Below the pieces are notes generated by a model. The model saw only the letters and a list, made by a program, of their open reading frames with translations, made no database searches and was not told the origin of the DNA. A DNA stretch of 64,000 nucleotides, from contig SCVB01000096.1 of the NCBI GenBank assembly GCA_004296955.1, forward strand, positions 62,001 through 126,000, given 5' to 3'. Positions 27,044 through 39,058 of this stretch are shown piece by piece. The position numbers were made by a program, and so were the translations under genes. Position 1 is the stretch's first letter. Each line of letters begins with the position of its first letter. This DNA comes from Brevundimonas sp. (GTDB lineage Bacteria; Pseudomonadota; Alphaproteobacteria; Caulobacterales; Caulobacteraceae).

Positions 27044-29419
27044 TCAGAAGCGGGCGGTCAGGGCCAGCCGCGCCGTGATCGGCCGCTGCGGCGTGCTCAT
27101 CGCGTCCGAGGCGTAGAACGGATTGCCGAAACTGAAGGTGTCGTCGTCGCGGTTGAACAGATTGTCGACCGAGGCCCTCACGCTCCATCGCCCAACCTCG
27201 GCGCTTACGCCGATCTGGCTGGTCAGATAGCCGGCGGAGACGCCGGTCGAGGTTGGCGAGAGGGCGATATCCGTCGGTCCGACGTAACCCAGCCGCGCCT
27301 CCGTGCGCACGGTCGCCTGCGCCAGCCTGGCCTCATGGACGAGGCCGGCCTGGAGGCTGAAGTCCGCCACCGCGGGCAGGCGGATGTCACCCCCGAGGTC
27401 AAAGCCCGGATCAGGATGCGTCAGGTCGGGGTCATTGACGACCGCATGGCCGTCCAGGGTCCACGGTCCGGACCGCCACTGGACCTCGCCCTCCAGGCCC
27501 TCGTTGCGGCCGTCGCCCAGATTGGCCGTGAAGGGCAGGCCGCGGTCGTCAAAGCGGTCGGACTGGATGTCGCTCCAGTCGGCCATAAAGACGGCGGCGC
27601 GACCGCGCAGATGTCCCTCGAGGAGGCTGAAACGCGCGCCGATCTCGCCGGCGGTGATCTCGTCAGGCCGCACCGAGCGGAACGGCTGCCGGCCGCCCGC
27701 GCCGACGGCCCCGGCGTTGAATCCCGGGCCGCGATAGCCCTCGGTCGCCAGGGCGTAGAAGACGAACGGGCCCCGGTCGTATTCCACCACTACACGCGGC
27801 GCGACGTCGACCAGGGCGTCCTCGCCCGCGGAGAATCCGGGCGTTCCCGCCGTCCCGCTGCGATGTTCGACGCCGATGCGGAACACCCGCGCCCCAACCG
27901 TGACGGCGAGGCGATCGCTGAGCGCATAGCGCACGTCGCCGAACAGCGCCGCCTCATCGACATGGTCCTCGCGCCGCCGCAGCAGGACGGCCGGGCCGCC
28001 CGCTCCGTCCGAGACGGCGACGGTCCCGTCGTGGGTGTATTCGGAGAAGAACAGGCCCGCGCTCCACTTCAGGCGCGCCCCCCGGTCCCCGTTGAGACGG
28101 ATTTCGTGCACCGCGGCGGACAGGTCGTCCGCCTGGTCCATCGCCGCCGTACCGGCCAGGCTGAACAGCGCCGCCGCCGGGGTCGCGTCATAGCGGGCGT
28201 CAAGGCTGTGGGACTGGATGCTGGAGGAGGCCTTCAGGCGGCCCCAGCCCAGGTCGCCTTCGACCGAGGCCCACAAGCCGTCGAAGTCGTTGCGATTGGG
28301 CTCAGCCAGCCGTCGGCGGCGCGCGTACGGGGAGCCGGGTCCGAGGGTCGCATACTGGCTGTCGTCGGCGTTCAGGGTCTGGGCGAGGAACCCCGCGCGC
28401 AGGGTCCAGCCCTCCCGGGGCGACCAGAGGGCGGCGGCCCTCAGTCCCTGCCGATGCACATCGCCGCTGTTGCCCAGACCCAGGGCCGGGTCGTCGACAT
28501 AGCCGCCGATGGTCTCGTCATAGCCGACCAGCCGGACGGCGAGACGATCCCTGAACAGGGGCGCATTGATCATCAATTCCGCGGTGGCCCCGGGCGAACC
28601 GCCCGAGGTCAGAGCGGCCTCCACCGTGGCGCGGCCGTAGAAGCCGGTCAGGTCCGGGGCGCGGGTCACCACCTGCACCACCCCGCCCATCGAGCCGGCG
28701 CCGTAGAGAGCGCCCTGCGGGCCGCGCAGGACCTCCACCCGCTCGATGTCGGTCAGCCTCAGGGCTGGGTCGGGCGCGTCATAGGTCAGGCGGACGTCGT
28801 CGAGATACAGGCCGATCAGGGCCTGGGCCTGCCCCGCCACCGGACCGTCGGCCATGCCGCGGATGAAGACCTTGTCGCGTCCCGGCCCGAGATTGGTGAC
28901 GGTCAGTCCCGCGACCCGCGCGGCGACGCCTGTAAGATCCGTGACCCCCGCCCGCTCCAGCGTCAGTCCGTCGAGCGACGACAGGCCGTAGGGCGCGCGC
29001 GACAGCAGCAGATCATCCGCCCGCGCGGCCGTGACCACGACCTCGTCGAGGGTCGCCACGTCCGACGAGGCGGGCGACGGGGGAGCCGAACGCAGCGGCG
29101 CGGGACGGCCCGGGGTCCTGCGAACGATCCGGTAGGCGCCCGCGCTGACCCGGCTCGCGGCGCAGTTGGTGCCGAGCGTCAGCCGCGACAGGGCGGTCTC
29201 GACGGACATGCGGCCCCGTACCCCGCGGCTGGTTCCGCACCGCTCGCTGCCGCCCGCATCAATGGTGACGCCGGCCTGAAGCCCGAACTCCATCAGGGCT
29301 GTCCGCAGCGGCTGCGGCCGCACCGACACCTCGACGGCGTCGCGGGCCTGGGCCTGGGCTGCGCAGGGCGCCGCGAGTCCGCAGGCGACGGCCAGAAGGC
29401 GGAGGAAGGCTCGTGACAA
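27044..29419 (-). CDS. TonB-dependent receptor with STN signalling domain
   Basis: A 791-residue outer-membrane receptor of the FecA/FpvA type. A signal peptide (to about residue 23, AQAQA) is followed by an STN domain (about 29-95, VEVSVRPQPLRTALMEFGLQ), which touches the FecR-like anti-sigma protein. Then come a linker, a TonB-box-like DEVVVTAAR, the plug (RVEVLRGPQGALYGAGSMGG) and a barrel ending in ARF. It starts with TTG 19 bp after the fecR-like gene. The context (sigma, anti-sigma, receptor) points to uptake of a ferric siderophore or haem-type ligand that induces its own operon. Confidence 0.92.
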   Translation of the reverse strand: MSRAFLRLLAVACGLAAPCAAQAQARDAVEVSVRPQPLRTALMEFGLQAGVTIDAGGSERCGTSRGVRGRMSVETALSRLTLGTNCAASRVSAGAYRIVRRTPGRPAPLRSAPPSPASSDVATLDEVVVTAARADDLLLSRAPYGLSSLDGLTLERAGVTDLTGVAARVAGLTVTNLGPGRDKVFIRGMADGPVAGQAQALIGLYLDDVRLTYDAPDPALRLTDIERVEVLRGPQGALYGAGSMGGVVQVVTRAPDLTGFYGRATVEAALTSGGSPGATAELMINAPLFRDRLAVRLVGYDETIGGYVDDPALGLGNSGDVHRQGLRAAALWSPREGWTLRAGFLAQTLNADDSQYATLGPGSPYARRRRLAEPNRNDFDGLWASVEGDLGWGRLKASSSIQSHSLDARYDATPAAALFSLAGTAAMDQADDLSAAVHEIRLNGDRGARLKWSAGLFFSEYTHDGTVAVSDGAGGPAVLLRRREDHVDEAALFGDVRYALSDRLAVTVGARVFRIGVEHRSGTAGTPGFSAGEDALVDVAPRVVVEYDRGPFVFYALATEGYRGPGFNAGAVGAGGRQPFRSVRPDEITAGEIGARFSLLEGHLRGRAAVFMADWSDIQSDRFDDRGLPFTANLGDGRNEGLEGEVQWRSGPWTLDGHAVVNDPDLTHPDPGFDLGGDIRLPAVADFSLQAGLVHEARLAQATVRTEARLGYVGPTDIALSPTSTGVSAGYLTSQIGVSAEVGRWSVRASVDNLFNRDDDTFSFGNPFYASDAMSTPQRPITARLALTARF

Positions 29420-29438
29420 GGCGGCGTCCGGTGAAGGT

Positions 29439-30410
29439 TCAGCGCCGTTCTAGACGAACCCCCTGCGGGCCGCGAGTGGCCCTGATCGGCAGGAAGCGCT
29501 CAAGGCGGGCGATGACGGCATCCTCGTCGTCGAGCTGCAGCACGCCGGAGAACCGCAGGTCGGCCGCGGCGGGCGCGACGACGACCGGAGTGGCGAAGGC
29601 GCGACTGAGGTCGGCCGCGATCTCGGACAGGGGGCGGTCGTCATAGGCGCGCCGGCCCTGGGTCCAGACGGCGGCGGTGCGGACGTCGACCGGCGCCACG
29701 GCCATTCGGTCGTCGGCGTCGTCCCGCCGGACCTGCTGTCCGATCGTCAGCCGCACCCTGTGCGACGGCTGCGCGCGGTCGGAGACCTCGACCACGCCGC
29801 GCAGCACGGAAACCTCCGTCTCCGCCGCCGTGCGCCGGATGTTGAAGGCGGTGCCGACGACGCGGACCCGGCTCTCGCCGACCTCGACCAGGAAGGGGCG
29901 GCCGGCCTCGTGGGCCACGTCGAAGGCCGCTTCGGCCTCGTCCATGCGGACCAGCCGGCGCCCCCGCTCCATCTTCACCGTCAGGGTCGAGCCGCCGTTG
30001 ATCTGCACTCGGGAGCCGTCGTCCAGCGTCACGGTCCGGATCTCGCCCGGGGCCGTGCGATAGATCACGGCGGGGGCGGACCGGAGCAGGGGCGCGAGGA
30101 GCACGGCCGCCGCCAGGGCCGCCGCGATCGCCGGCGCCGCGACCCGCCAGCCCGGGTTGAAGCCAGTTCGGCGCGGCCGGCGCGCGGCCAGGTCGACCAC
30201 GGGGGCGGCCTGACCGGGCAGCAGATCGCCCAGGCCCGCCCACAGGGCTTCGGCCTCATCGAACGCCTGTCGGTGGGCCGGGTCGGCCTCGAGCCAGGCC
30301 GTCGCCGCGGCCAGGTCCTCGTCGGACGCATCGTCGGCGCGCAGCCGCACGACCCAGGCGGCGGCCCGGGCGGCGGTCTCCTCGTCGTGAGCGGCGGCGT
30401 CGTGGGTCAT
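29439..30410 (-). CDS. FecR-like anti-sigma factor
   Basis: Inner-membrane anti-sigma/sigma-regulator that carries the signal from the receptor STN domain to the ECF sigma factor. The 323-residue protein has a cytoplasmic DUF4880 sigma-binding part (about 13-60, AAAWVVRLR to AFDEAEALW), a membrane segment (about 92-112), the periplasmic FecR domain (about 115-215, TAPGEIRTVTLDDGSRVQIN) and a C-terminal DUF4974-like part that contacts the receptor. It lies between the sigma factor and receptor genes on the same strand. Confidence 0.92.
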   Translation of the reverse strand: MTHDAAAHDEETAARAAAWVVRLRADDASDEDLAAATAWLEADPAHRQAFDEAEALWAGLGDLLPGQAAPVVDLAARRPRRTGFNPGWRVAAPAIAAALAAAVLLAPLLRSAPAVIYRTAPGEIRTVTLDDGSRVQINGGSTLTVKMERGRRLVRMDEAEAAFDVAHEAGRPFLVEVGESRVRVVGTAFNIRRTAAETEVSVLRGVVEVSDRAQPSHRVRLTIGQQVRRDDADDRMAVAPVDVRTAAVWTQGRRAYDDRPLSEIAADLSRAFATPVVVAPAAADLRFSGVLQLDDEDAVIARLERFLPIRATRGPQGVRLERR

Positions 30411-30495
30411 GATCCGGTCCGGGCCCGAACGGGCTTCAGATGAGAGACGACGCGGTCGCGTCGCACCCTCAATGAAAAATGGCGAAATGGCGTCC

Positions 30496-31056
30496 TCATG
30501 GCCAACCCACCCGCAGCAGAAGCTCCTTCAGCGAGGCGGCGACGTATTTTTCGACCGCGCTGCGCGACACGCCCATGCGGGCCGCGACCTCGGCCTGGCT
30601 GAGTCCGCCGATCCGGTGCAGGCGAAAGGCCTCGGCGGCCTTGGGCGGCATGCGCTCAATGGCCGCCATCACCCGCTCCAGCTTCAGACGGGCCCAGACC
30701 GCGTCCTCGGCGGACGGCGCGTCCCCGGCCTCGTCGTCATCCCCGGCGACATGGGCGCGGCGCCAGTCCAGATCCCGGGCGCCCGCCCGGCGCTGCGCCT
30801 TGGACCGGTCCAGCGCCAGATTGCCCGCCAGGCGGTAGAGGAAGGCCCGCGGCTGGCGAACCTCGGCGGCCGCCGTCTCGGGCAGGGCCTGAAGGCGCAG
30901 CCAGATGTCCTGCGCCAGATCCTCGGCCGTGGCCGCCGATCCCGTCCGCGCGGTCAGGAAGCGCACCGGGGCCGGCCGGATCTCCATCCACAGGTCGACC
31001 AACGCCTGCCGCGCGCTGGTCGGGTCGTCCGGAGGAGGGCCATGCGGGGAATCCAC
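30496..31056 (-). CDS. ECF-family RNA polymerase sigma factor (FecI-like)
   Basis: Sigma factor that transcribes the downstream receptor operon when released by the FecR-like protein. Region 2 is seen in TAEDLAQDIWLRLQAL and FLYRLAGNLALDR, and region 4 in LSQAEVAARMGVSRSAVEKY (helix-turn-helix). With the GTG at 31056 the protein has 186 residues, a normal length. The open frame reaches 31185, which would overlap the start of the divergent gene at 31176 and adds an untypical basic tail; the start remains uncertain. Confidence 0.88.
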   Translation of the reverse strand: MDSPHGPPPDDPTSARQALVDLWMEIRPAPVRFLTARTGSAATAEDLAQDIWLRLQALPETAAAEVRQPRAFLYRLAGNLALDRSKAQRRAGARDLDWRRAHVAGDDDEAGDAPSAEDAVWARLKLERVMAAIERMPPKAAEAFRLHRIGGLSQAEVAARMGVSRSAVEKYVAASLKELLLRVGWP

Positions 31057-31175
31057 CGCCTCATCGTGGGTCCGGCGCCCGAGCGCGGCAACCGCTTTCC
31101 GTCCGGCCCGGATTTTTTTGTGGGAGGGGGCGGTCGGCGTCGTCTGAGGCCCAGAGACCCCAGTCCGAGGCCCGC
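31057..31175. promoter_or_regulatory. Divergent promoter region (sigma factor / hemolysin-family operon)
   Basis: A 119-bp gap between two divergent starts, with a T-rich stretch (ATTTTTTTGTGG) in otherwise high-GC DNA. It must hold the promoters of both the ECF sigma operon and the six-gene operon on the plus strand. No exact consensus is visible. Confidence 0.4.
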
Positions 31176-31862
31176 ATGTTCTCACTCCGGATCCCCGTCC
31201 CGGCCGACCCGGCGCCCGCCCGCCTGCGGCGGACCCTGTCGTCCCGCATCATCCGCTTCGACGACCCATGCCGTGGCGAGCGTCGCCGCGTCGAACGGTT
31301 CATCGAGGACACCTACGCCCAGGCCTACGGGGGCCAGATCCACGCCCACTACCCCACCCTGATGAGCGTGCAGGACGAGGCCGGCGCCATCTATGCGGTC
31401 GTAGGTTTCCGTCACGCGGCCGAGGGGCCGCTGTTTCTCGAACAGTATCTGGATGCGCCGGTCGAGGCGGTCCTTGGCCACAACCTCGGGACCGCGGTCG
31501 ACCGCGGTCATGTGGTCGAGATCGGCGGCCTGGCCTCCAGCGGCCAGGGCGCTACCGTCTTCCTGTTCGCCGCCATGGCCCGTCACCTGCAGCACGAAGG
31601 CCTGAGGTTCGCAGTCGCCACGGCCACCGGCGAACTGCGGCGCATCTTCCACAAGGCCGGGCTCGGCGCGCTGCAGCTGGCCGCCGCCGACCCACGCCGG
31701 TTGGAGGACGGCGGCGCGGCCTGGGGGGCCTATTACCAGTCCGACCCCGTGGTGCTGGCGGGCCTGATAGAGGCCGCGACGGCGCCGCTGGACCATTTCG
31801 CTGAGGCCGCACCGGTGGGCCGGGCCGTCCGCACCCGCCTGCACTATCAGGATCGCGGATGA
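31176..31862 (+). CDS. Thermostable hemolysin family protein (GNAT-like)
   Basis: A 228-residue protein of the T_hemolysin family (PF12261), named after Vibrio delta-VPH. Family marks are VERFIEDTYAQAYGG, GPLFLEQYLDAPVEAVLG, VVEIGGLASSGQG, RFAVATATGELRRIFHKAGL and WGAYYQSDPVVLAG. The fold pattern is that of GNAT and autoinducer-synthase-like acyltransferases, so an enzymatic role (acyl transfer) is more likely than pore formation; there is no signal peptide or membrane segment. GAGG stands 5 bases before the ATG. It is the first gene of a six-gene operon and overlaps the ligase gene by 4 bp. Confidence 0.82.
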   Translation: MFSLRIPVPADPAPARLRRTLSSRIIRFDDPCRGERRRVERFIEDTYAQAYGGQIHAHYPTLMSVQDEAGAIYAVVGFRHAAEGPLFLEQYLDAPVEAVLGHNLGTAVDRGHVVEIGGLASSGQGATVFLFAAMARHLQHEGLRFAVATATGELRRIFHKAGLGALQLAAADPRRLEDGGAAWGAYYQSDPVVLAGLIEAATAPLDHFAEAAPVGRAVRTRLHYQDRG

Positions 31863-33286
31863 GCGCCGTTCTCGAAGCCCTTTCGCGGCGCGCCGGGGCG
31901 ACGCCGGACGATCCGGCGCTGCTCTGGAAGGACGGCACCCTGTCCGCCGCCGGCCTGATGGCCGAGACGAGCCGTCTGGCGGCGCTCCTGTCCGGCGGCG
32001 ATTCGCCCGTCGGCCTGCTGCTCGACAACGGCCCCGCCTGGGTCGTCGCCGACCTGGCCCTGATGCTCGCCGGACGGCCCGGCGTGCCGATCCCGCCGTT
32101 CTTCACCCCGGCCCAGCGCGATCACGCCCTCGCCGACGCCGGCGCCGGCCTGCTGATCACGCCGGGCGGCCCGGACGACGTCGCCGTGGCCGACGCCCGC
32201 CTGCGGCTGTCGCCCACCGGATTCGCGCCGCGCCCGCTGCATGCCGGGACAGCCAAGATCACCTACACCTCGGGCTCAACCGGCGCGCCCAAGGGCGTCT
32301 GCCTCTCGCAGGCCCAGATGGAGGCCGTCGCCGGTTCGCTGGTCACGGTGCTGGGGCGCGATCGGGCCGGCCTGCATCTGCCCGTCCTGCCGCTGGCGGT
32401 GCTGCTCGAGAACGTCGCCGGCCTCTACGCCACCCTGCTGGCGGGCGGCCGATACTACGCCGCCACCCTGGCGGAAGCCGGGATGGGCGAGGCCTTCCGT
32501 CCGGACTTCGCCTGCCTGCTCACGACGACGGCCCGGAGCGGCGCCACCACCCTGATCCTGGTGCCCGAACTGCTTCGGGGCCTGATCGCCGCCCAGGCGG
32601 CCCTGCGGCTCGATCACCGGCTGGAGATGATCGCAGTCGGCGGCGCGCGCGTCTCGCCGGCCCTGCTGGACGCCGCCTCGGCCGTCGGACTGCCGGTGGT
32701 CGAGGGATACGGCCTCAGCGAATGCGCCTCGGTCGTGGCGCTGAACCTGCCCGGCGACGCCTGTCCCGGGACGGTCGGCAGGCCCCTGCCCCATCTGGAG
32801 GTCGCCCTGGCCGCGGACGGCGAGATTCTCGTCTCGCCCCACCCCTTCCTCGGCTATGTCGGCGCGGAGGCCGCGCCCCGGGTCCTGCACACGGGCGATA
32901 CCGGCGCCTTCGACGCCGCGGGTCGACTGTCCATCTCGGGGCGCAAGGCCAACACCCTCATCACCGCCTTTGGCCGCAACGTCGCGCCGGAATGGGTCGA
33001 AAGCGAACTGCTGGCCGAGCCCCGGATCCTGCAGGCCATGGTGATGGGCGAGGCGGAGGCGACGCTGTCGGCCCTGATCGTGGCCATGCCGGGCGCCGAC
33101 CGGGTCGAGGTCGAGGCCGCCGTCGCCCGCGCCAACGGTCGCCTGCCCGACTACGCCCGCATCGGCGACTGGCGGCTGGTCCCGCCGTTCGACCCGGCCG
33201 CCGGCCAGATCACCGCCAACGGTCGTCCCCGCCGCGACGTCCTGCGGCGGGCCTATCCCACCTCCTCCCGTTCCCACGCCGCCTGA
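31859..33286 (+). CDS. AMP-binding (ANL superfamily) acyl/aryl ligase-like enzyme
   Basis: A 475-residue ANL enzyme, expected to activate a carboxylic acid as acyl-AMP and perhaps pass it to CoA or an amine. Motifs: A3 TYTSGSTGAPKGV (135-147), A5 YGLSECAS (about 282), A7 HTGDTGAFDAAGRLSISGRK (about 343-362) and the hinge region FGRNVAPEWVE. The A10 motif, normally NGK, is ITANGRPRRD: Arg456 stands where the catalytic Lys is expected. The adenylation step may therefore be slow or lost, or the protein may do the second half-reaction only. It overlaps the gene before and is 8 bp from the diiron oxidase gene. Confidence 0.85.
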   Translation: MSAVLEALSRRAGATPDDPALLWKDGTLSAAGLMAETSRLAALLSGGDSPVGLLLDNGPAWVVADLALMLAGRPGVPIPPFFTPAQRDHALADAGAGLLITPGGPDDVAVADARLRLSPTGFAPRPLHAGTAKITYTSGSTGAPKGVCLSQAQMEAVAGSLVTVLGRDRAGLHLPVLPLAVLLENVAGLYATLLAGGRYYAATLAEAGMGEAFRPDFACLLTTTARSGATTLILVPELLRGLIAAQAALRLDHRLEMIAVGGARVSPALLDAASAVGLPVVEGYGLSECASVVALNLPGDACPGTVGRPLPHLEVALAADGEILVSPHPFLGYVGAEAAPRVLHTGDTGAFDAAGRLSISGRKANTLITAFGRNVAPEWVESELLAEPRILQAMVMGEAEATLSALIVAMPGADRVEVEAAVARANGRLPDYARIGDWRLVPPFDPAAGQITANGRPRRDVLRRAYPTSSRSHAA

Positions 33287-33294
33287 GAGTGCGC

Positions 33295-33972
33295 ATGTCC
33301 TTCTTCGATACCCTTGTCGCCTCGACCGCCGCCGAGCGCGCGGCCTTCGCCGCCATCCCCCAGATCCGCGACGGCGTGGCCGGCCGGATCAGCCGGGACG
33401 CCTATGTCGCCTATCTGGGCCAGGCCTATCACCACGTCAGCCACACCGTGCCCCTGATGCAGGCGGCCCGCGCCCGCCTGGGCGACGACAAGGCCGTCTA
33501 CCGGAGCGCGCTGGATGACTACATCGCCGAGGAGACCGGCCACGAGCAGTGGATCCTGAACGACATCCGGGCGGCCGGGGGCGATCCCGTCCAGGCCGTC
33601 GCCGACGGCCCCAACGCCGCGACGGAGCTGATGGTCGCCTATGCCTATGACACCATCCAGCGGGTCAATCCGATGGCCTTCTTCGGCATGGTCTATGTGC
33701 TGGAAGGGACCAGCATCCAGCTGGCCAATGTCGGGGCCGAGGCGGTCCAGAAGAGCCTGGACCTGCCGCCGGCCGCCTTCACCTACCTTGTCTCCCACGG
33801 CGCGCTGGACCAGGACCACATCCTGTTCCTCAAACAGGTCCTCGACGGCGTCACGGACGCCGGTGACCGCGCCGCCATCATCCATATGGCCCGGATGATG
33901 TTCGGCCTGTTCGGCGGCGTCTTCGCCTCGATTCCCCACGTCGCGACCCGGGAAACGGCCGATGCGGTTTAG
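33295..33972 (+). CDS. Haem-oxygenase-like diiron oxidase (TenA/UndA-like)
   Basis: A 225-residue all-helical protein of the TenA/haem-oxygenase-like group often named iron-containing redox enzyme. Possible metal ligands are Glu80 and His83 in EETGHEQW, Glu137 in VLEGTS, and His168, Asp172/Asp174 and His175 in SHGALDQDH. This set matches diiron oxidases such as UndA, BesC and SznF better than thiaminase TenA, which uses a Cys nucleophile. Such enzymes cleave C-C bonds, make terminal alkenes or oxidise nitrogen. ATG 33295 is preferred; a GTG lies 6 bp upstream. It overlaps the SDR gene by 9 bp. Confidence 0.8.
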   Translation: MSFFDTLVASTAAERAAFAAIPQIRDGVAGRISRDAYVAYLGQAYHHVSHTVPLMQAARARLGDDKAVYRSALDDYIAEETGHEQWILNDIRAAGGDPVQAVADGPNAATELMVAYAYDTIQRVNPMAFFGMVYVLEGTSIQLANVGAEAVQKSLDLPPAAFTYLVSHGALDQDHILFLKQVLDGVTDAGDRAAIIHMARMMFGLFGGVFASIPHVATRETADAV

Positions 33973-34714
33973 GGATCGCGACTTCCTCGTCACGGGCGGC
34001 TCCGGGGCGCTCGGCCGCCGCGTGGTCGAACAGATCGCCCGCGAGGGCGGCCGCGTCGTGGTGGTCGCCCGCGCGCCCGTCGCCGGCCGGGAGACCATCG
34101 TCGGCGACCTGTCGACGCCGCAGGGCCTGGAGGCCGTCGCCGAGGCCGTCGGGGCGCGGTCGTGGGACGGACTGGTCAACATCGCCGGCGTGCAGCATTT
34201 CGGACCGCTGGAGGACCAGTCGCCGGAGCACCTGCTGGCCTCCTATCTGATCAATCTGGTCGCGCCGGCGCGTCTCACCCAGGCCGTCCTGCCGGGCATG
34301 AAGCAGCGGGGCCGCGGCCAGATCGCCAATGTCGGCTCCATCTTCGGCTCGATCAACTTCGCCCATTTCGCCACCTATTCGAGCGCAAAGGCAGGCATGC
34401 GCGCGCTGAGCCAGGCGCTGCGGCGCGAACTGGTCGGCACGGGGATTGCGGTCACCTATGTCGCGCCCCGCGCGGTGGCAACGCCCTTCAACTCGGCCAG
34501 GGTCGACGAATATGCGCGCCTGACCGGCATGACCCGGGACGATCCGGACCGCATCGCCCGCAAGATCGTCAACGCCATCCGCGCCGGCCGGCGGGACGTC
34601 TACCTCGGCTTCCCCGAAAGCCTGTTCGTCCGGCTGAACGGCCTGGCCCCCGGGCTGATCGACGGGGCCCTGAGATCCAACGACCTGAAGGCCCGCGCCC
34701 TGTTCGCCGGCTGA
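33964..34714 (+). CDS. Short-chain dehydrogenase/reductase
   Basis: A 250-residue classical SDR with the cofactor loop TGGSGALG (11-18), NIAGVQHFG (about 73-81), catalytic Ser near NVGSIFGS and Tyr139-Lys143 in YSSAK. It likely oxidises or reduces a hydroxyl/keto group of the product made by this operon. C-terminal Leu/Gly-rich residues (about 220-245) could associate with membrane. The start overlaps the diiron oxidase gene. Confidence 0.9.
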
Positions 34715-34737
34715 AATCAGACAAGGAGAGGAACACC

Positions 34738-35385
34738 ATGAAACGCGCCCTGTTTGCCCTGACCGTGATCGTCGCCCCCATGGCGGCGGCCTCGGTCGCC
34801 CATGCCGACGCCTGCGACGACCGCACCCGCGGTCTCCAGCAGTCATGGGATCATGTGAATTTCGAAGTCGCCCAGACCGTCAGGGCCGCCGAAATGGCCC
34901 GGCTGAACGCCCAGGCCGACGCCGTCGTGGCGCAATGCCCCAACCGGGCCGAGCCCCTGGTCTGGAGCGCCATCATCACCGCCTCCGAGGCCGGACTGCG
35001 CGGCGGCCTCGGCGCCCTCGGCCTGGTGCGCGAGGCGCGGACCCGGCTTGAGCAGGCCGAGCGGATCAATCCCCGCGCGCTGAACGGTTCGATCTATGTC
35101 TCGCTGGGCTCCCTTTACGCCCAGGTGCCGGGCGCACCCATCGGTTTCGGCAACCGCCGGCGGGCGCGGGAGTATCTGCAGCGCGGTCTCGCGATGGCAC
35201 CGAATGACATCGACGCCAACTTCTTCATGGGCGACCTGCTGGTGCGCGAGCGCGACTGGACGGGCGCGGCGCGCTATCTGCAGAAGGCCATCGACGCCCC
35301 GGCACGGCCGGGCCGCGCCGCAGCCGACCGTGGACGCAAGGCCGAAGCACGTGCATTGCTCGCACGCGCTCAACAGCAGCGCTGA
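34738..35385 (+). CDS. Periplasmic TPR-repeat protein
   Basis: A 215-residue protein with a cleavable signal (ASVAHADA, cleavage near residue 23). It contains helical repeats of TPR type; the clearest are around ARTRLEQAERINPRAL and REYLQRGLAMAPNDIDANFF. AAGGAGAGG lies before the ATG and the gap from the SDR gene is 23 bp, so it belongs to the same operon. TPR proteins act as protein-protein adaptors; its partner is unknown. Confidence 0.75.
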   Translation: MKRALFALTVIVAPMAAASVAHADACDDRTRGLQQSWDHVNFEVAQTVRAAEMARLNAQADAVVAQCPNRAEPLVWSAIITASEAGLRGGLGALGLVREARTRLEQAERINPRALNGSIYVSLGSLYAQVPGAPIGFGNRRRAREYLQRGLAMAPNDIDANFFMGDLLVRERDWTGAARYLQKAIDAPARPGRAAADRGRKAEARALLARAQQQR

Positions 35386-35396
35386 GACACCGCAAT

Positions 35397-36029
35397 ATGA
35401 CCCAGCTTCAGCCCGCGCCCCTGTCTCTCGATATTGTCCAGCACCGCCGTAAATGGTTCGCCGGCCTCACCCTGCTCGCGCTTCTGGCCCTGGCGGCCAG
35501 CGTCCGTTCCGTCGCCGCCTTCAACGGCGCCTGGCACGATGGGGTCGAGGCCTTCGGCCTGGCCCTGATAATCATCGCCATCGTCGGCCGCGGGTGGTGC
35601 TCGCTCTACATCGGCGGACGAAAGAAGGCCGAGATCGTGGATCGCGGGCCCTATTCCGTGACCCGGAACCCGCTCTATGTCTTCAGCTTCATCGGCGCCT
35701 TCGGCATCGGGGCCCAGACCGGCAGCCTCGTCATCGGAGCCGCCTTCGCCGCAGCGACCTTCCTCGTCTTCCTGCGCACCGTCGGCCGCGAGGAGGCCTG
35801 GCTGGCCGCGAATTTCGGCGACCACTACGACGCCTACCGCCAGCGGACCCCGCGCTTCTGGCCGAATCCGCGATTGTGGCGCGACGCCGAGGAGCTGACT
35901 ATCCGCCCCGCCTTCTTTGTGCGCACCCTGCGCGACGGGTTGACCTTCCTCGCCGCCATTCCGGTCATGGAGGGAATCGAGCGCCTGCAGGCCGCCGGAC
36001 TCATCGGGCTGCCCATCGGCCTGTTCTGA
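35397..36029 (+). CDS. Isoprenylcysteine methyltransferase-like membrane protein
   Basis: A 210-residue integral membrane protein with three to four hydrophobic segments and the PEMT/ICMT SAM-site pattern RGPYSVTRNPLYV (about 82-94). Later it has EEAWLAANFGDHYDAYRQR, the typical E-x-x-L-x-x-x-F-G-x-x-Y element. It probably methylates a hydrophobic substrate, perhaps the operon product or a phospholipid. It is 11 bp after the TPR gene and is the last gene of the operon, before the convergent tRNA gene. Confidence 0.82.
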   Translation: MTQLQPAPLSLDIVQHRRKWFAGLTLLALLALAASVRSVAAFNGAWHDGVEAFGLALIIIAIVGRGWCSLYIGGRKKAEIVDRGPYSVTRNPLYVFSFIGAFGIGAQTGSLVIGAAFAAATFLVFLRTVGREEAWLAANFGDHYDAYRQRTPRFWPNPRLWRDAEELTIRPAFFVRTLRDGLTFLAAIPVMEGIERLQAAGLIGLPIGLF

Positions 36030-36065: not shown

Positions 36066-36149
36066 TGGTGCGGGCGGTCGGACTCGAACCGACACTCCAG
36101 AAGGACCCGGGTTTTAAGCCCGGTGCGTCTACCATTTCGCCACGCCCGC
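36066..36149 (-). tRNA. tRNA-Leu(UAA)
   Basis: An 84-base gene with a seven-base acceptor stem (GCGGGCG/CGCCCGC), leucine-type D-arm (TGGCGAAATGGTAGACGC), and anticodon stem CCGGG/CCCGG with loop CTTAAAA, giving anticodon UAA. A long variable arm, T-arm GTCGG/CCGAC around TTCGAGT, and an encoded CCA end complete it. It reads the UUA codon, rare in this high-GC genome. Confidence 0.96.
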
Positions 36150-38257: not shown

Positions 38258-39058
38258 ATGATTTCAAGCCTGTTGGCTGCCGTTGCGCTCGCCCAGACAC
38301 CAGTCTGTGCGCCGATCGCCGGCGCGGATCTGTTGTGGGAAGACCCCGGGGTCCGTTTCGTCTTCGTCGGCGAGACGCACGGCGCTGCCGAACCGCCCGT
38401 CGCTTTCGCCGAGATGGTCTGCGCCCGGTCGGCGGCTGGCCCCGTCGTGGTGGCGCTGGAGATGCCGGCGGCGATGCAGGCCGACCTGGACCGGTGGTTC
38501 GCCTCTGACGGCGGCCCGGCGGCGCGCCACGCCCTTCTGGCCCACGACTATTGGGACGTGGACCATGCCGACGGGCGGTCGAGCGCGGCCATGCTGGCAA
38601 TGCTGGAGCGACTCCTTGACCTTGCGGCCGCCGGACGGGACCTCACGATCCGCGCCTATCAGCCCAGCGACCGCCGCCCGACAGGATTCGACCAGTCCTA
38701 TTACGAGGTCGACATGGCCCGGCTGCTGATCGACGCGGCGGCGGTTCGCCCGGAGGCGTCGGTGCTGGCCCTCGGCGGATCGCTTCATGCGATGAAGACC
38801 TTCTCGCCGCGCCACGGCTTCCTGTTCGCCGCCGGCCACCTGAATCCCGCCCACGTCCGCTCGCTGGTCGTCGCCCACCAGGGCGGCTCGGTCTGGGCCT
38901 GTTTCGGTCCGACACGGGCCGACTGCGGCGTAAGAGAGTTGAGCGTCGGCTTCGATCCCGCCCGGCGTGGCGTGATCCTCGAAGTCCAGCAAGATGGGTC
39001 GTGGGACGGGCTGTTGGCTCTTGGACCGACCACCGCCTCGCCACCCGCCGCTCAGTAG
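38258..39058 (+). CDS. Secreted protein with GETHG motif (ChaN/EreA-like fold)
   Basis: A 266-residue protein with a short signal-like N-terminus (MISSLLAAVALAQTPVCA). The motif FVFVGETHGAAEPP (about 34-47) and VVALEMPAAM (about 64-73) match the haem-binding ChaN-like and erythromycin-esterase-like superfamily, which shares the GE-x-H and E-x-P elements. Later, LALGGSLHAMK carries a further His. Possible roles are haem/iron binding or ester hydrolysis; sequence alone does not decide. It stands alone, 140 bp from the divergent DUF3297 gene. Confidence 0.7.
   Translation: MISSLLAAVALAQTPVCAPIAGADLLWEDPGVRFVFVGETHGAAEPPVAFAEMVCARSAAGPVVVALEMPAAMQADLDRWFASDGGPAARHALLAHDYWDVDHADGRSSAAMLAMLERLLDLAAAGRDLTIRAYQPSDRRPTGFDQSYYEVDMARLLIDAAAVRPEASVLALGGSLHAMKTFSPRHGFLFAAGHLNPAHVRSLVVAHQGGSVWACFGPTRADCGVRELSVGFDPARRGVILEVQQDGSWDGLLALGPTTASPPAAQ

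What the first reader, a model, noticed from the sequence alone, without database searches (positions are those of the whole stretch)
31176..36029. Six-gene operon that looks like an uncharacterised small biosynthetic cluster
Six plus-strand genes with overlaps or gaps of 8-23 bp encode a T_hemolysin-family GNAT-like protein, an ANL ligase, a haem-oxygenase-like diiron oxidase, an SDR, a periplasmic TPR protein and an ICMT-like methyltransferase. Ligase, acyltransferase-like protein, diiron oxidase, SDR and methyltransferase together fit synthesis of a modified fatty-acid or amino-acid derivative, not a hemolysin. From memory, similar gene sets stand beside delta-VPH-type hemolysin genes in Vibrio and some pseudomonads; I know of no assigned product. 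An ECF/iron-uptake set is divergent from it, so iron control is conceivable.
Basis: partly seen in the sequence, partly recalled or inferred. Interest (0 to 1): 0.72.

Follow-up and report, generated by a model that had tools for sequence, protein, structure and literature searches.

The report
Conserved sensor-linked lipid-like biosynthesis operon
A row of genes, one of them probably misnamed a hemolysin, forms a five-gene set that is kept together across many Proteobacteria, often next to iron- or envelope-sensing genes, and probably makes a small fatty molecule that has not been identified.

Summary
The six genes are real and as described. The conserved unit is the first five: a PF12261 "thermostable hemolysin", an ANL ligase, a haem-oxygenase-fold diiron oxidase, an SDR and an exported TPR protein. 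All five occur together on one strand in 56 of 67 PF12261 loci and 71 of 80 oxidase loci. The methyltransferase is local. In 20 of 141 loci ligase and oxidase share one reading frame. Profile comparison makes PF12261 a remote relative of LuxI-type acyltransferases (E 3.9e-5; score 38.8 against at most 17.6 in 60 shuffles), so "hemolysin" is probably a misnomer. Most loci carry a linked sensor. In Caulobacteraceae-type loci it is a divergent sigma-FecR-TonB receptor set, with TGNGG-N17-CGTC before both fecR and the operon. In most others it is a PmrA/QseB-like two-component pair, with a PmrA-type TTAA-N7-TTAA repeat before the operon in 35 of 61 loci. Some also carry FTR1 permease and cupredoxin genes. 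Best reading: sensor-controlled synthesis of an acylated, oxidised small molecule, probably linked to iron. The product is unknown; metallophore, signal and envelope lipid remain open.

The parts
31176..31862 (+). PF12261 'thermostable hemolysin' (HLY); remote LuxI-type acyltransferase
   Evidence: Pfam 1e-52; hhalign to 44 LuxI-type sequences E 3.9e-5 with shuffle, reversal and family controls
31859..33286 (+). ANL-superfamily adenylating ligase (ANL); Arg at the usual A10 lysine
   Evidence: Pfam 1.6e-45; R456 invariant in 32 sequences, aligned with Lys of LgrA
33295..33972 (+). Haem-oxygenase-like diiron oxidase (HDO), probable ligands E80 H83 E137 H168 D172 H175
   Evidence: Pfam 4.2e-24; the six residues invariant in 36 sequences; nearest solved chain 3dde
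33962..34714 (+). Short-chain dehydrogenase/reductase (SDR), N98 S126 Y139 K143
   Evidence: Pfam 5.9e-34; residues invariant in 26 sequences
34738..35385 (+). Exported TPR protein, weakly BstC/TatT-like
   Evidence: Signal-peptide-like N-termini in relatives, judged by eye; 50 of 50 aligned members match BstC, all listed matches far below its cut-off for the window's copy; 12 of 50, not the window's, match TAtT PF16811
35397..36029 (+). PEMT/ICMT-like methyltransferase, lineage-specific extra gene
   Evidence: Pfam PF04191 1.3e-9; in 3 of 67 and 2 of 80 loci
31119..31144 (+). Putative ECF-sigma promoter of the operon, TGTGG-N17-CGTC
   Evidence: Site class before HLY in 18 of 27 FecIR-linked loci, spacer 17
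30446..30471 (-). Putative ECF-sigma promoter of fecR-receptor, TGAGG-N17-CGTC
   Evidence: Only exact match in the window; same class before fecR in 25 of 27 loci
30496..31185 (-). FecI-like ECF sigma factor; true start probably lower than 31185 (inference: most relatives are about 175 aa)
   Evidence: Pfam Sigma70_r4_2 2.5e-14
29439..30410 (-). FecR-like regulator
   Evidence: Pfam FecR 2.7e-18
27044..29419 (-). TonB-dependent receptor, weak N-terminal STN signalling domain match
   Evidence: Pfam; its best hit lies beside the operon in 10 of 13 other operon-bearing genomes tested

Best explanation
A conserved five-gene cassette makes an acyl-derived small molecule under control of a cell-surface sensor. 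Proposed order (inferred): the ANL ligase activates a carboxylic acid; the LuxI-like PF12261 protein transfers the acyl group to an amine or similar acceptor; the diiron oxidase, fused to the ligase in some lineages, oxidises the product or its precursor (desaturation, C-C cleavage or N-oxygenation); the SDR reduces or oxidises the result; the TPR protein handles it in the periplasm; some lineages add a methyltransferase. In Caulobacteraceae a TonB receptor-FecR-sigma relay switches on both fecR-receptor and the operon. In many other Proteobacteria a PmrA/QseB-like pair takes that role. The iron link (FecIR-receptor, FTR1 permease with cupredoxin) suggests the molecule works in iron handling or responds to it. 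Shown by computation: gene linkage, fusion, conserved residues, remote LuxI relationship, promoter-like elements. Inferred: substrates, step order, product, iron role, and binding by these regulators.
For: Five-gene linkage from two anchors: 56 of 67 and 71 of 80 loci. ANL-HDO in one frame in 20 of 141 loci. Six ligand-type residues invariant in 36 HDOs (3H/3C class from PMC13108848, section 4). LuxI relationship. The receptor beside the operon is the best match of the window receptor in 10 of 13 other operon-bearing genomes tested. Receptors of at least 430 bits occur in 13 of 13 operon-bearing genomes of the sampled family and in 15 of 86 operon-lacking ones (Fisher 6e-9, relatedness not corrected). 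TGNGG-N17-CGTC stands before HLY in 18 of 27 and before fecR in 25 of 27 loci, against 0 of 27 before ECF, 0 of 26 before the receptor and 1 of 27 before ANL. TTAA-N7-TTAA stands before HLY in 35 of 61 two-component loci, other spacers at most 4 of 61. FTR1 PF03239 over cut-off in 2 of 4 permeases scanned; cupredoxin 8.6e-25 in the one scanned. In P. alcaligenes AVO110 genes annotated ligase, oxidase, SDR, TPR and regulator rise 38- to 389-fold together (PMC8304167 Table 4).
Against: The ligase carries Arg where ANL enzymes usually have the catalytic A10 Lys (role recalled), so adenylation is not assured. The LuxI match has about 70% probability and covers only residues of about 60-170 of 228. 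The nine sphingomonad-type FecIR loci lack the site before HLY. 26 of 61 two-component loci, the five named Pseudomonas loci among them, lack the exact repeat, and 7 of 82 loci without the regulator have it. In the window alone the promoter pattern with one mismatch is not enriched: 28 found, 28.2 expected. Receptors as similar occur in 15 of 86 genomes without the operon, and in G419, G430 and G469 the best match is on another contig than the operon. 23 of 80 loci show neither sensor in the DNA held. PmrA-type systems also answer to cationic peptides (recalled). FecIR may control the operon without sensing its product.
Confidence: 0.5

Rival explanations
1. Envelope lipid modification. The operon makes an unusual membrane lipid, placed by the TPR protein, as part of a PmrA-type response to metal ions or cationic peptides; the iron genes are regulatory neighbours.
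For: PmrA/QseB-like regulators (2 scanned) and PmrA-type repeats; TPR proteins match BstC, named a sterol transporter, in 50 of 50 members at E 0.01; GT2, VTT and PMT_2 membrane genes in four loci, L080, L094, L095, L099.
Against: In Caulobacteraceae the partner is a TonB receptor relay, a type that senses or imports outside ligands; FTR1/cupredoxin genes point to iron; the PMT-type genes are rare (4 of 67 loci).
Confidence: 0.25
2. Catabolism. The set activates and degrades a fatty acid or other hydrophobic carboxylate taken up from outside, through the receptor in alphaproteobacteria.
For: Authors of PMC8304167 read the induced P. alcaligenes set as fatty-acid beta-oxidation and say its fadD is the gene found earlier to be needed in fungal exudate (PMC6344628, one passage). 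Ligase plus SDR fits in general.
Against: Among the window genes and the recurring neighbour types whose representatives I looked at I recognised no acyl-CoA dehydrogenase, hydratase or thiolase; this was not a dedicated search. A LuxI-like transferase and a diiron oxidase are not beta-oxidation enzymes.
Confidence: 0.15
3. PF12261 is a true hemolysin and the neighbours mature or export it.
For: Historical delta-VPH name (recalled) and database labels.
Against: No export signal is apparent by eye at the window N-terminus; the family resembles LuxI-type enzymes, cytoplasmic as I recall; the linked HDO scan finds the set in many environmental Proteobacteria.
Confidence: 0.03

Closest known systems
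LuxI/FeeM-type acyltransferases with a feeding acyl ligase (RpaI- or FeeM-like systems; examples recalled)
   Same: LuxI-like transferase next to an acyl-activating enzyme; small operon; linked sensor in many loci
   Different: PF12261 lies far from PF00765 and matches it only profile to profile; it does not match FeeM above controls; oxidase, SDR and TPR protein added; no LuxR noted next to it
HDO biosynthetic clusters (mangotoxin MboA, fluopsin FlcD/E, SznF, UndA)
   Same: Haem-oxygenase-fold oxidase with the 3H/3C pattern
   Different: No ATP-grasp, NRPS or cupin partner among the window genes; oxidase fused to an ANL ligase in some lineages; nearest solved chain is the unassigned 3dde
Pyoverdine-type regulation, FpvA-FpvR-sigma (recalled)
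   Same: TonB receptor, FecR-like protein and ECF sigma tied to a biosynthetic operon with matching promoter elements
   Different: No NRPS; sensing of the operon's own product is not shown; other lineages use a two-component pair
PmrAB regulon (recalled)
   Same: PmrA/QseB-like regulator and TTAA-N7-TTAA direct repeats
   Different: Biosynthetic cassette; lipid-A-type genes seen in only a few loci

Membership tests
T_hemolysin PF12261 | Match over the family cut-off | tested here: met
   178.9 bits, cut-off 27
T_hemolysin PF12261 | Membrane-lysing activity | not testable with these tools
   Needs protein
LuxI (PF00765) family | Direct PF00765 match | tested here: not met
   No PF00765 hit at E 0.1 in any of 64 members
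LuxI-like fold or clan | Remote profile similarity above controls | tested here: met
   E 3.9e-5; 60 shuffles at most 17.6 against 38.8; 15 other profiles, FeeM and GNAT included, E 0.038 or worse
LuxI-like fold or clan | Predicted or solved fold | not testable with these tools
   Structure prediction switched off
HDO diiron oxidases | Six-residue 3H/3C ligand set | tested here: met
   E80 H83 E137 H168 D172 H175 invariant in 36 of 36; calling them ligands is inferred from spacing and recall
HDO diiron oxidases | Metal content and O2 reaction | not testable with these tools
   Needs protein
ANL ligases | P-loop TSGSTGxPKG and GR hinge | tested here: met
   Conserved in 32 sequences
ANL ligases | A10 catalytic lysine | tested here: not met
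   Arg456 invariant, aligned with Lys in LgrA; motif role recalled
SDR | Nucleotide-binding glycines and N-S-Y-K residues | tested here: met
   T11 G12 G18 N98 S126 Y139 K143 invariant in 26 sequences
FecIR-type surface signalling | ECF sigma, FecR and receptor with STN domain, adjacent | tested here: met
   the STN match is weak (20.3 bits, cut-off 28.4)
FecIR-type surface signalling | Sigma factor drives the operon | tested here: inconclusive
   Shared, spacer-specific promoter element in Caulobacteraceae-type loci, absent in nine sphingomonad-type loci; no expression data
Siderophore/metallophore cluster | Known siderophore synthetase (NRPS or NIS) | tested here: not met
   None among the window operon and divergent genes nor in nine recurring neighbour types scanned
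Siderophore/metallophore cluster | Product chelates metal | not testable with these tools
   Needs product

The most novel reading that the evidence does not exclude
The 'thermostable hemolysin' operon is a widespread, self-sensed biosynthetic system for a non-NRPS, acyl-based metallophore or lipid signal. A LuxI-like synthase works with a diiron oxidase that lies next to or fused with its ligase, and different lineages have plugged in different surface sensors for the molecule (TonB receptor-FecR-sigma, or a PmrAB-like pair).
Probability: 0.25. Interest if true: 0.82.

Novelty: new variant of a known kind. Interest (0 to 1): 0.62.

Why it matters
PF12261 was found in 78 of 398 sampled genomes of the phylum, and its gene is labelled thermostable hemolysin in the three annotated records I opened, so surveys may count it as a toxin. 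If the reading holds, that label is wrong, and a compact, widespread pathway with an unusual LuxI-like plus diiron-oxidase pairing awaits its product. The promoter elements also suggest a direct way to switch it on and find that product.

Tried and rejected
Fur control: the best matches to a recalled 19-bp consensus reached 15 of 19 once and at most 12 otherwise before HLY or ECF in 28 loci, at most 11 before fecR or the receptor, and up to 14 before HLY in the 115 loci without FecIR; not claimed.

FeeM (PF21926) and general GNAT profiles: no similarity to PF12261 above controls (E 0.45 and 0.12); only the larger LuxI set gave a signal. A first LuxI set of 12 sequences was too weak (E 0.012).

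ANL substrate: the profile matches amino-acid adenylation domains, MenE and acyl-CoA ligases alike, so amino acid against fatty acid was not decided. The invariant Glu184 aligns near the usual amine-binding Asp in one LgrA domain, but I recall a Glu there in long-chain acyl ligases as well.

Receptor co-occurrence: my first 22 operon-lacking genomes gave 2 with a receptor of 430 bits or more. Completing the family while checking this report raised that to 15 of 86 (there only 15 candidates a genome were scored, so it is a lower bound) and added two operon-bearing genomes whose receptor is on another contig. The association stands but is less exclusive than the first sample suggested; I left the odds as they were because the linkage and promoter evidence do not rest on it.

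Papers: ten searches found no study of this operon's product. In one search the term with an underscore was read as 'themolysin', so that term tested nothing. Only open-licence papers are held. Seen: passages of PMC8304167, PMC10469919, PMC7296048, PMC6344628, PMC13185094 and PMC11870441; abstract, sections 4 and 11 and passages of PMC13108848; find calls on PMC6922518 and PMC8079746 returned no occurrence. Other papers only as search listings.

The sixth gene as core: rejected. PF12261 without the cassette exists: L064, L065, L068, L010 (only 3.4 kb held), and L091 with the ligase only.
Full report
What is in the window. The window is an alphaproteobacterial contig; the nearest named oxidase loci are Brevundimonas (ASV9 and Leaf363, 86 and 85% identity). 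Six plus-strand genes lie at 31176-36029 as described: PF12261 protein (HLY), ANL ligase, haem-oxygenase-fold oxidase (HDO), SDR, TPR protein and a PEMT/ICMT-like methyltransferase. Divergently, 27044-31185 carries an ECF sigma factor, FecR and a TonB-dependent receptor.

Linkage. PF12261 was found in 78 of 398 genomes drawn from the phylum and 13 of 99 of the family: widespread but patchy. I fetched neighbourhoods at 56 of the other 79 places, 10 further places and the own locus (67); 21 of the 23 places left out belong to one family (f38). All five genes HLY-ANL-HDO-SDR-TPR occur on one strand in 56 of 67; 55 keep that order. Of the 11 misses, L066, L071, L076 and L108 are cut by contig ends; L064, L065, L068 and the 3.4-kb L010 hold PF12261 alone; L091 has HLY and ANL; L072 lacks SDR and TPR; L096 lacks SDR. 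Of the 9 misses, L127, L133, L149, L166, L175 and L177 are cut by contig ends; L129 lacks the TPR gene; L148 and L162 have it on the other strand. Five pairs of loci are the same DNA in both sets, so 142 are distinct; 125 of 142 match all five when strand and distance are ignored. The 80 are the most similar part of the relatives, so their rate is not an average. Copies more than 5.5 kb away appeared once by tblastn, an SDR; blastp on ORFs showed three weak ones (L075, L079, L097).

Extra genes. The window's methyltransferase occurs in 3 of 67 and 2 of 80 loci. Another methyltransferase, annotated class I in Novosphingobium, lies beside the TPR gene in 13 of 80 loci. Different methyltransferases recruited to one place suggest optional tailoring of a small molecule (inference).

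The proteins. HDO: E80, H83, E137, H168, D172 and H175 are invariant in 36 sequences. The pattern fits the 3H/3C class described in PMC13108848; assigning each ligand rests on recall of UndA. The nearest solved chain is 3dde, of unassigned function; the profile also reaches CT610 (CADD, recalled), a 4-aminobenzoate synthase and MboA. ANL and HDO share one reading frame in 20 of 141 loci that could be judged, annotated as one AMP-binding protein in Novosphingobium. This suggests they act on a common intermediate. ANL: typical ATP-binding motifs, but the usual A10 lysine is Arg, invariant in 32 sequences. SDR: N98, S126, Y139 and K143 are invariant in 26 sequences. TPR: by eye nearly all 76 relatives start with a signal-peptide-like stretch; 50 of 50 match BstC, named a sterol transporter, at E 0.01 (best 1e-13; the window's copy 0.0051 and far below the cut-off), and 12 of 50, not the window's, match the TRAP T-component. 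General TPR matches are as common. A hydrophobic cargo is plausible, not shown.

PF12261 is LuxI-like. No member matches an acyltransferase family directly apart from one FR47 match at E 0.094 (64 scanned). Profile against profile, it matches 44 LuxI-type sequences at E 3.9e-5, probability 70%, over 106 columns (residues of about 59-173); 15 other profiles, FeeM and general GNATs among them, gave E 0.038 or worse. Shuffling the columns 60 times gave scores of at most 17.6 against 38.8, and the reversed alignment 13.8. As a yardstick, LuxI against general GNATs gave 7.4e-4 and against FeeM 9e-13. The invariant Glu115 falls at a conserved Glu of the LuxI consensus in that alignment. No structure could be predicted.

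Sensors, first kind. The window receptor's best match lies beside the operon in 10 of 13 other operon-bearing genomes tested (9 of 12 in the family, plus G301), although the genomes hold 9 to 44 matches each. The exceptions are G419, G430 and G469, where it is on another contig; in G469 the operon contig ends inside fecR. Receptors of at least 430 bits occur in 13 of 13 operon-bearing genomes of the family and in 15 of 86 operon-lacking ones (Fisher 6e-9). Relatedness is not corrected for, and not all candidates were scored in each genome. So the receptor goes with the operon but is not exclusive to it.

Reading the DNA between the divergent genes showed a recurrent TGAGG-N17-CGTC. Among 27 distinct loci with sigma and FecR, TGNGG-N17-CGTC stands before HLY in 18 and before fecR in 25; before ECF 0 of 27, before the receptor 0 of 26, before ANL 1 of 27, before SDR 0 of 25. 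The spacer is specific: other spacers gave 0 to 1 exact matches before HLY or fecR, except 14, which is the same CGTCGTC read one repeat earlier. The nine loci without it before HLY are of sphingomonad type (eight named sphingomonads and L096 by arrangement). Of 115 loci without both sigma and FecR in reach, 7 have it: L105 and L161 (one contig twice), L106, L118 and L162, all of Caulobacteraceae type, and L060 and L088. In the window the sites are 31119-31144 (+, TGTGG) and 30446-30471 (-, exact); the pattern with one mismatch is not rare in the window as a whole, 28 against 28.2 expected, so the case rests on conserved position. A sigma factor that drives both fecR-receptor and the operon is the natural reading (inference).

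Sensors, second kind. In many other loci, beta- and gammaproteobacterial for the most part, a response regulator and kinase stand by, usually downstream; the two scanned pairs score best as PmrA/QseB and QseC/heavy-metal type. Of the 80 named loci, 41 have only the pair, 15 only FecR, 1 both and 23 neither within the DNA held. TTAA-N7-TTAA, the core of the PmrA box as I recall it, stands before HLY in 35 of 61 loci with the regulator; other spacers gave at most 4, and the same repeat stands before ANL, HDO, SDR and TPR in 0, 1, 0 and 0. It is missing in 26 of 61, the five named Pseudomonas loci included, and present in 7 of 82 loci without the regulator. In 12 of 80 loci cupredoxin and FTR1-like permease genes follow, with a beta-barrel-like protein. 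FTR1 passes Pfam's cut-off in 2 of 4 permeases scanned, is below it in one and gives no match in one.

Published data. In Pseudomonas alcaligenes AVO110 neighbouring genes annotated AMP-binding, iron-containing redox enzyme, SDR, TPR and response regulator rise 389-, 373-, 318-, 107- and 38-fold in fungal exudate (PMC8304167 Table 4); the PF12261 gene is not in that table. The authors read this as fatty-acid degradation and say its fadD was found earlier to be needed there (PMC6344628). I did not compare the sequences; names and order match the cassette. For Vibrio parahaemolyticus, PMC10469919 lists possible interactions of a regulator (VP1735) with VP1729 (thermostable hemolysin) and VP1731 (iron-containing redox enzyme).

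Mechanism. I put most weight on ligase-fed acyl transfer by the LuxI-like protein, oxidation by the HDO, adjustment by the SDR and periplasmic handling by the TPR protein, switched by an envelope or iron sensor. Gene linkage, fusion, residues, remote homology and promoter-like elements are computed; everything about substrates, order, product and sensing is inference. An envelope lipid, a metallophore or a signal would all fit. No Fur site was found.

Verdict.

Noticed in passing
L295 (Citrobacter freundii plasmid NZ_CP026058), 6925-11091: Hemolysin-, ligase-, redox-enzyme- and SDR-annotated genes plus a hypothetical protein in cassette order on a plasmid typed mobilizable, a few kb from a heavy-metal two-component pair.
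   Followed up: no
L296 (Vibrio parahaemolyticus plasmid NZ_CP085859), 4925-9076: The same five-gene order on a plasmid typed conjugative; no two-component genes are listed in the 14.7 kb shown (gene table may be incomplete).
   Followed up: no
L064, L065, L068, L010: PF12261 genes without the cassette in the DNA held; L068 is a second copy in a genome that also has the full set, L061.
   Followed up: partly
window 38258-39058: Weak match to the haem-binding ChaN/Tiki family (7.7e-4, below cut-off), near the operon.
   Followed up: no
L124, L125, L146, L153, L160, L189: TPR gene precedes the SDR gene.
   Followed up: no
window 36066-36149: tRNA-Leu (TAA) on the minus strand directly after the operon.
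   Followed up: no
G401, G413, G480 and 12 other operon-lacking genomes of the family: Receptors about as similar to the window's as the operon-linked ones, without PF12261 in the genome.
   Followed up: partly
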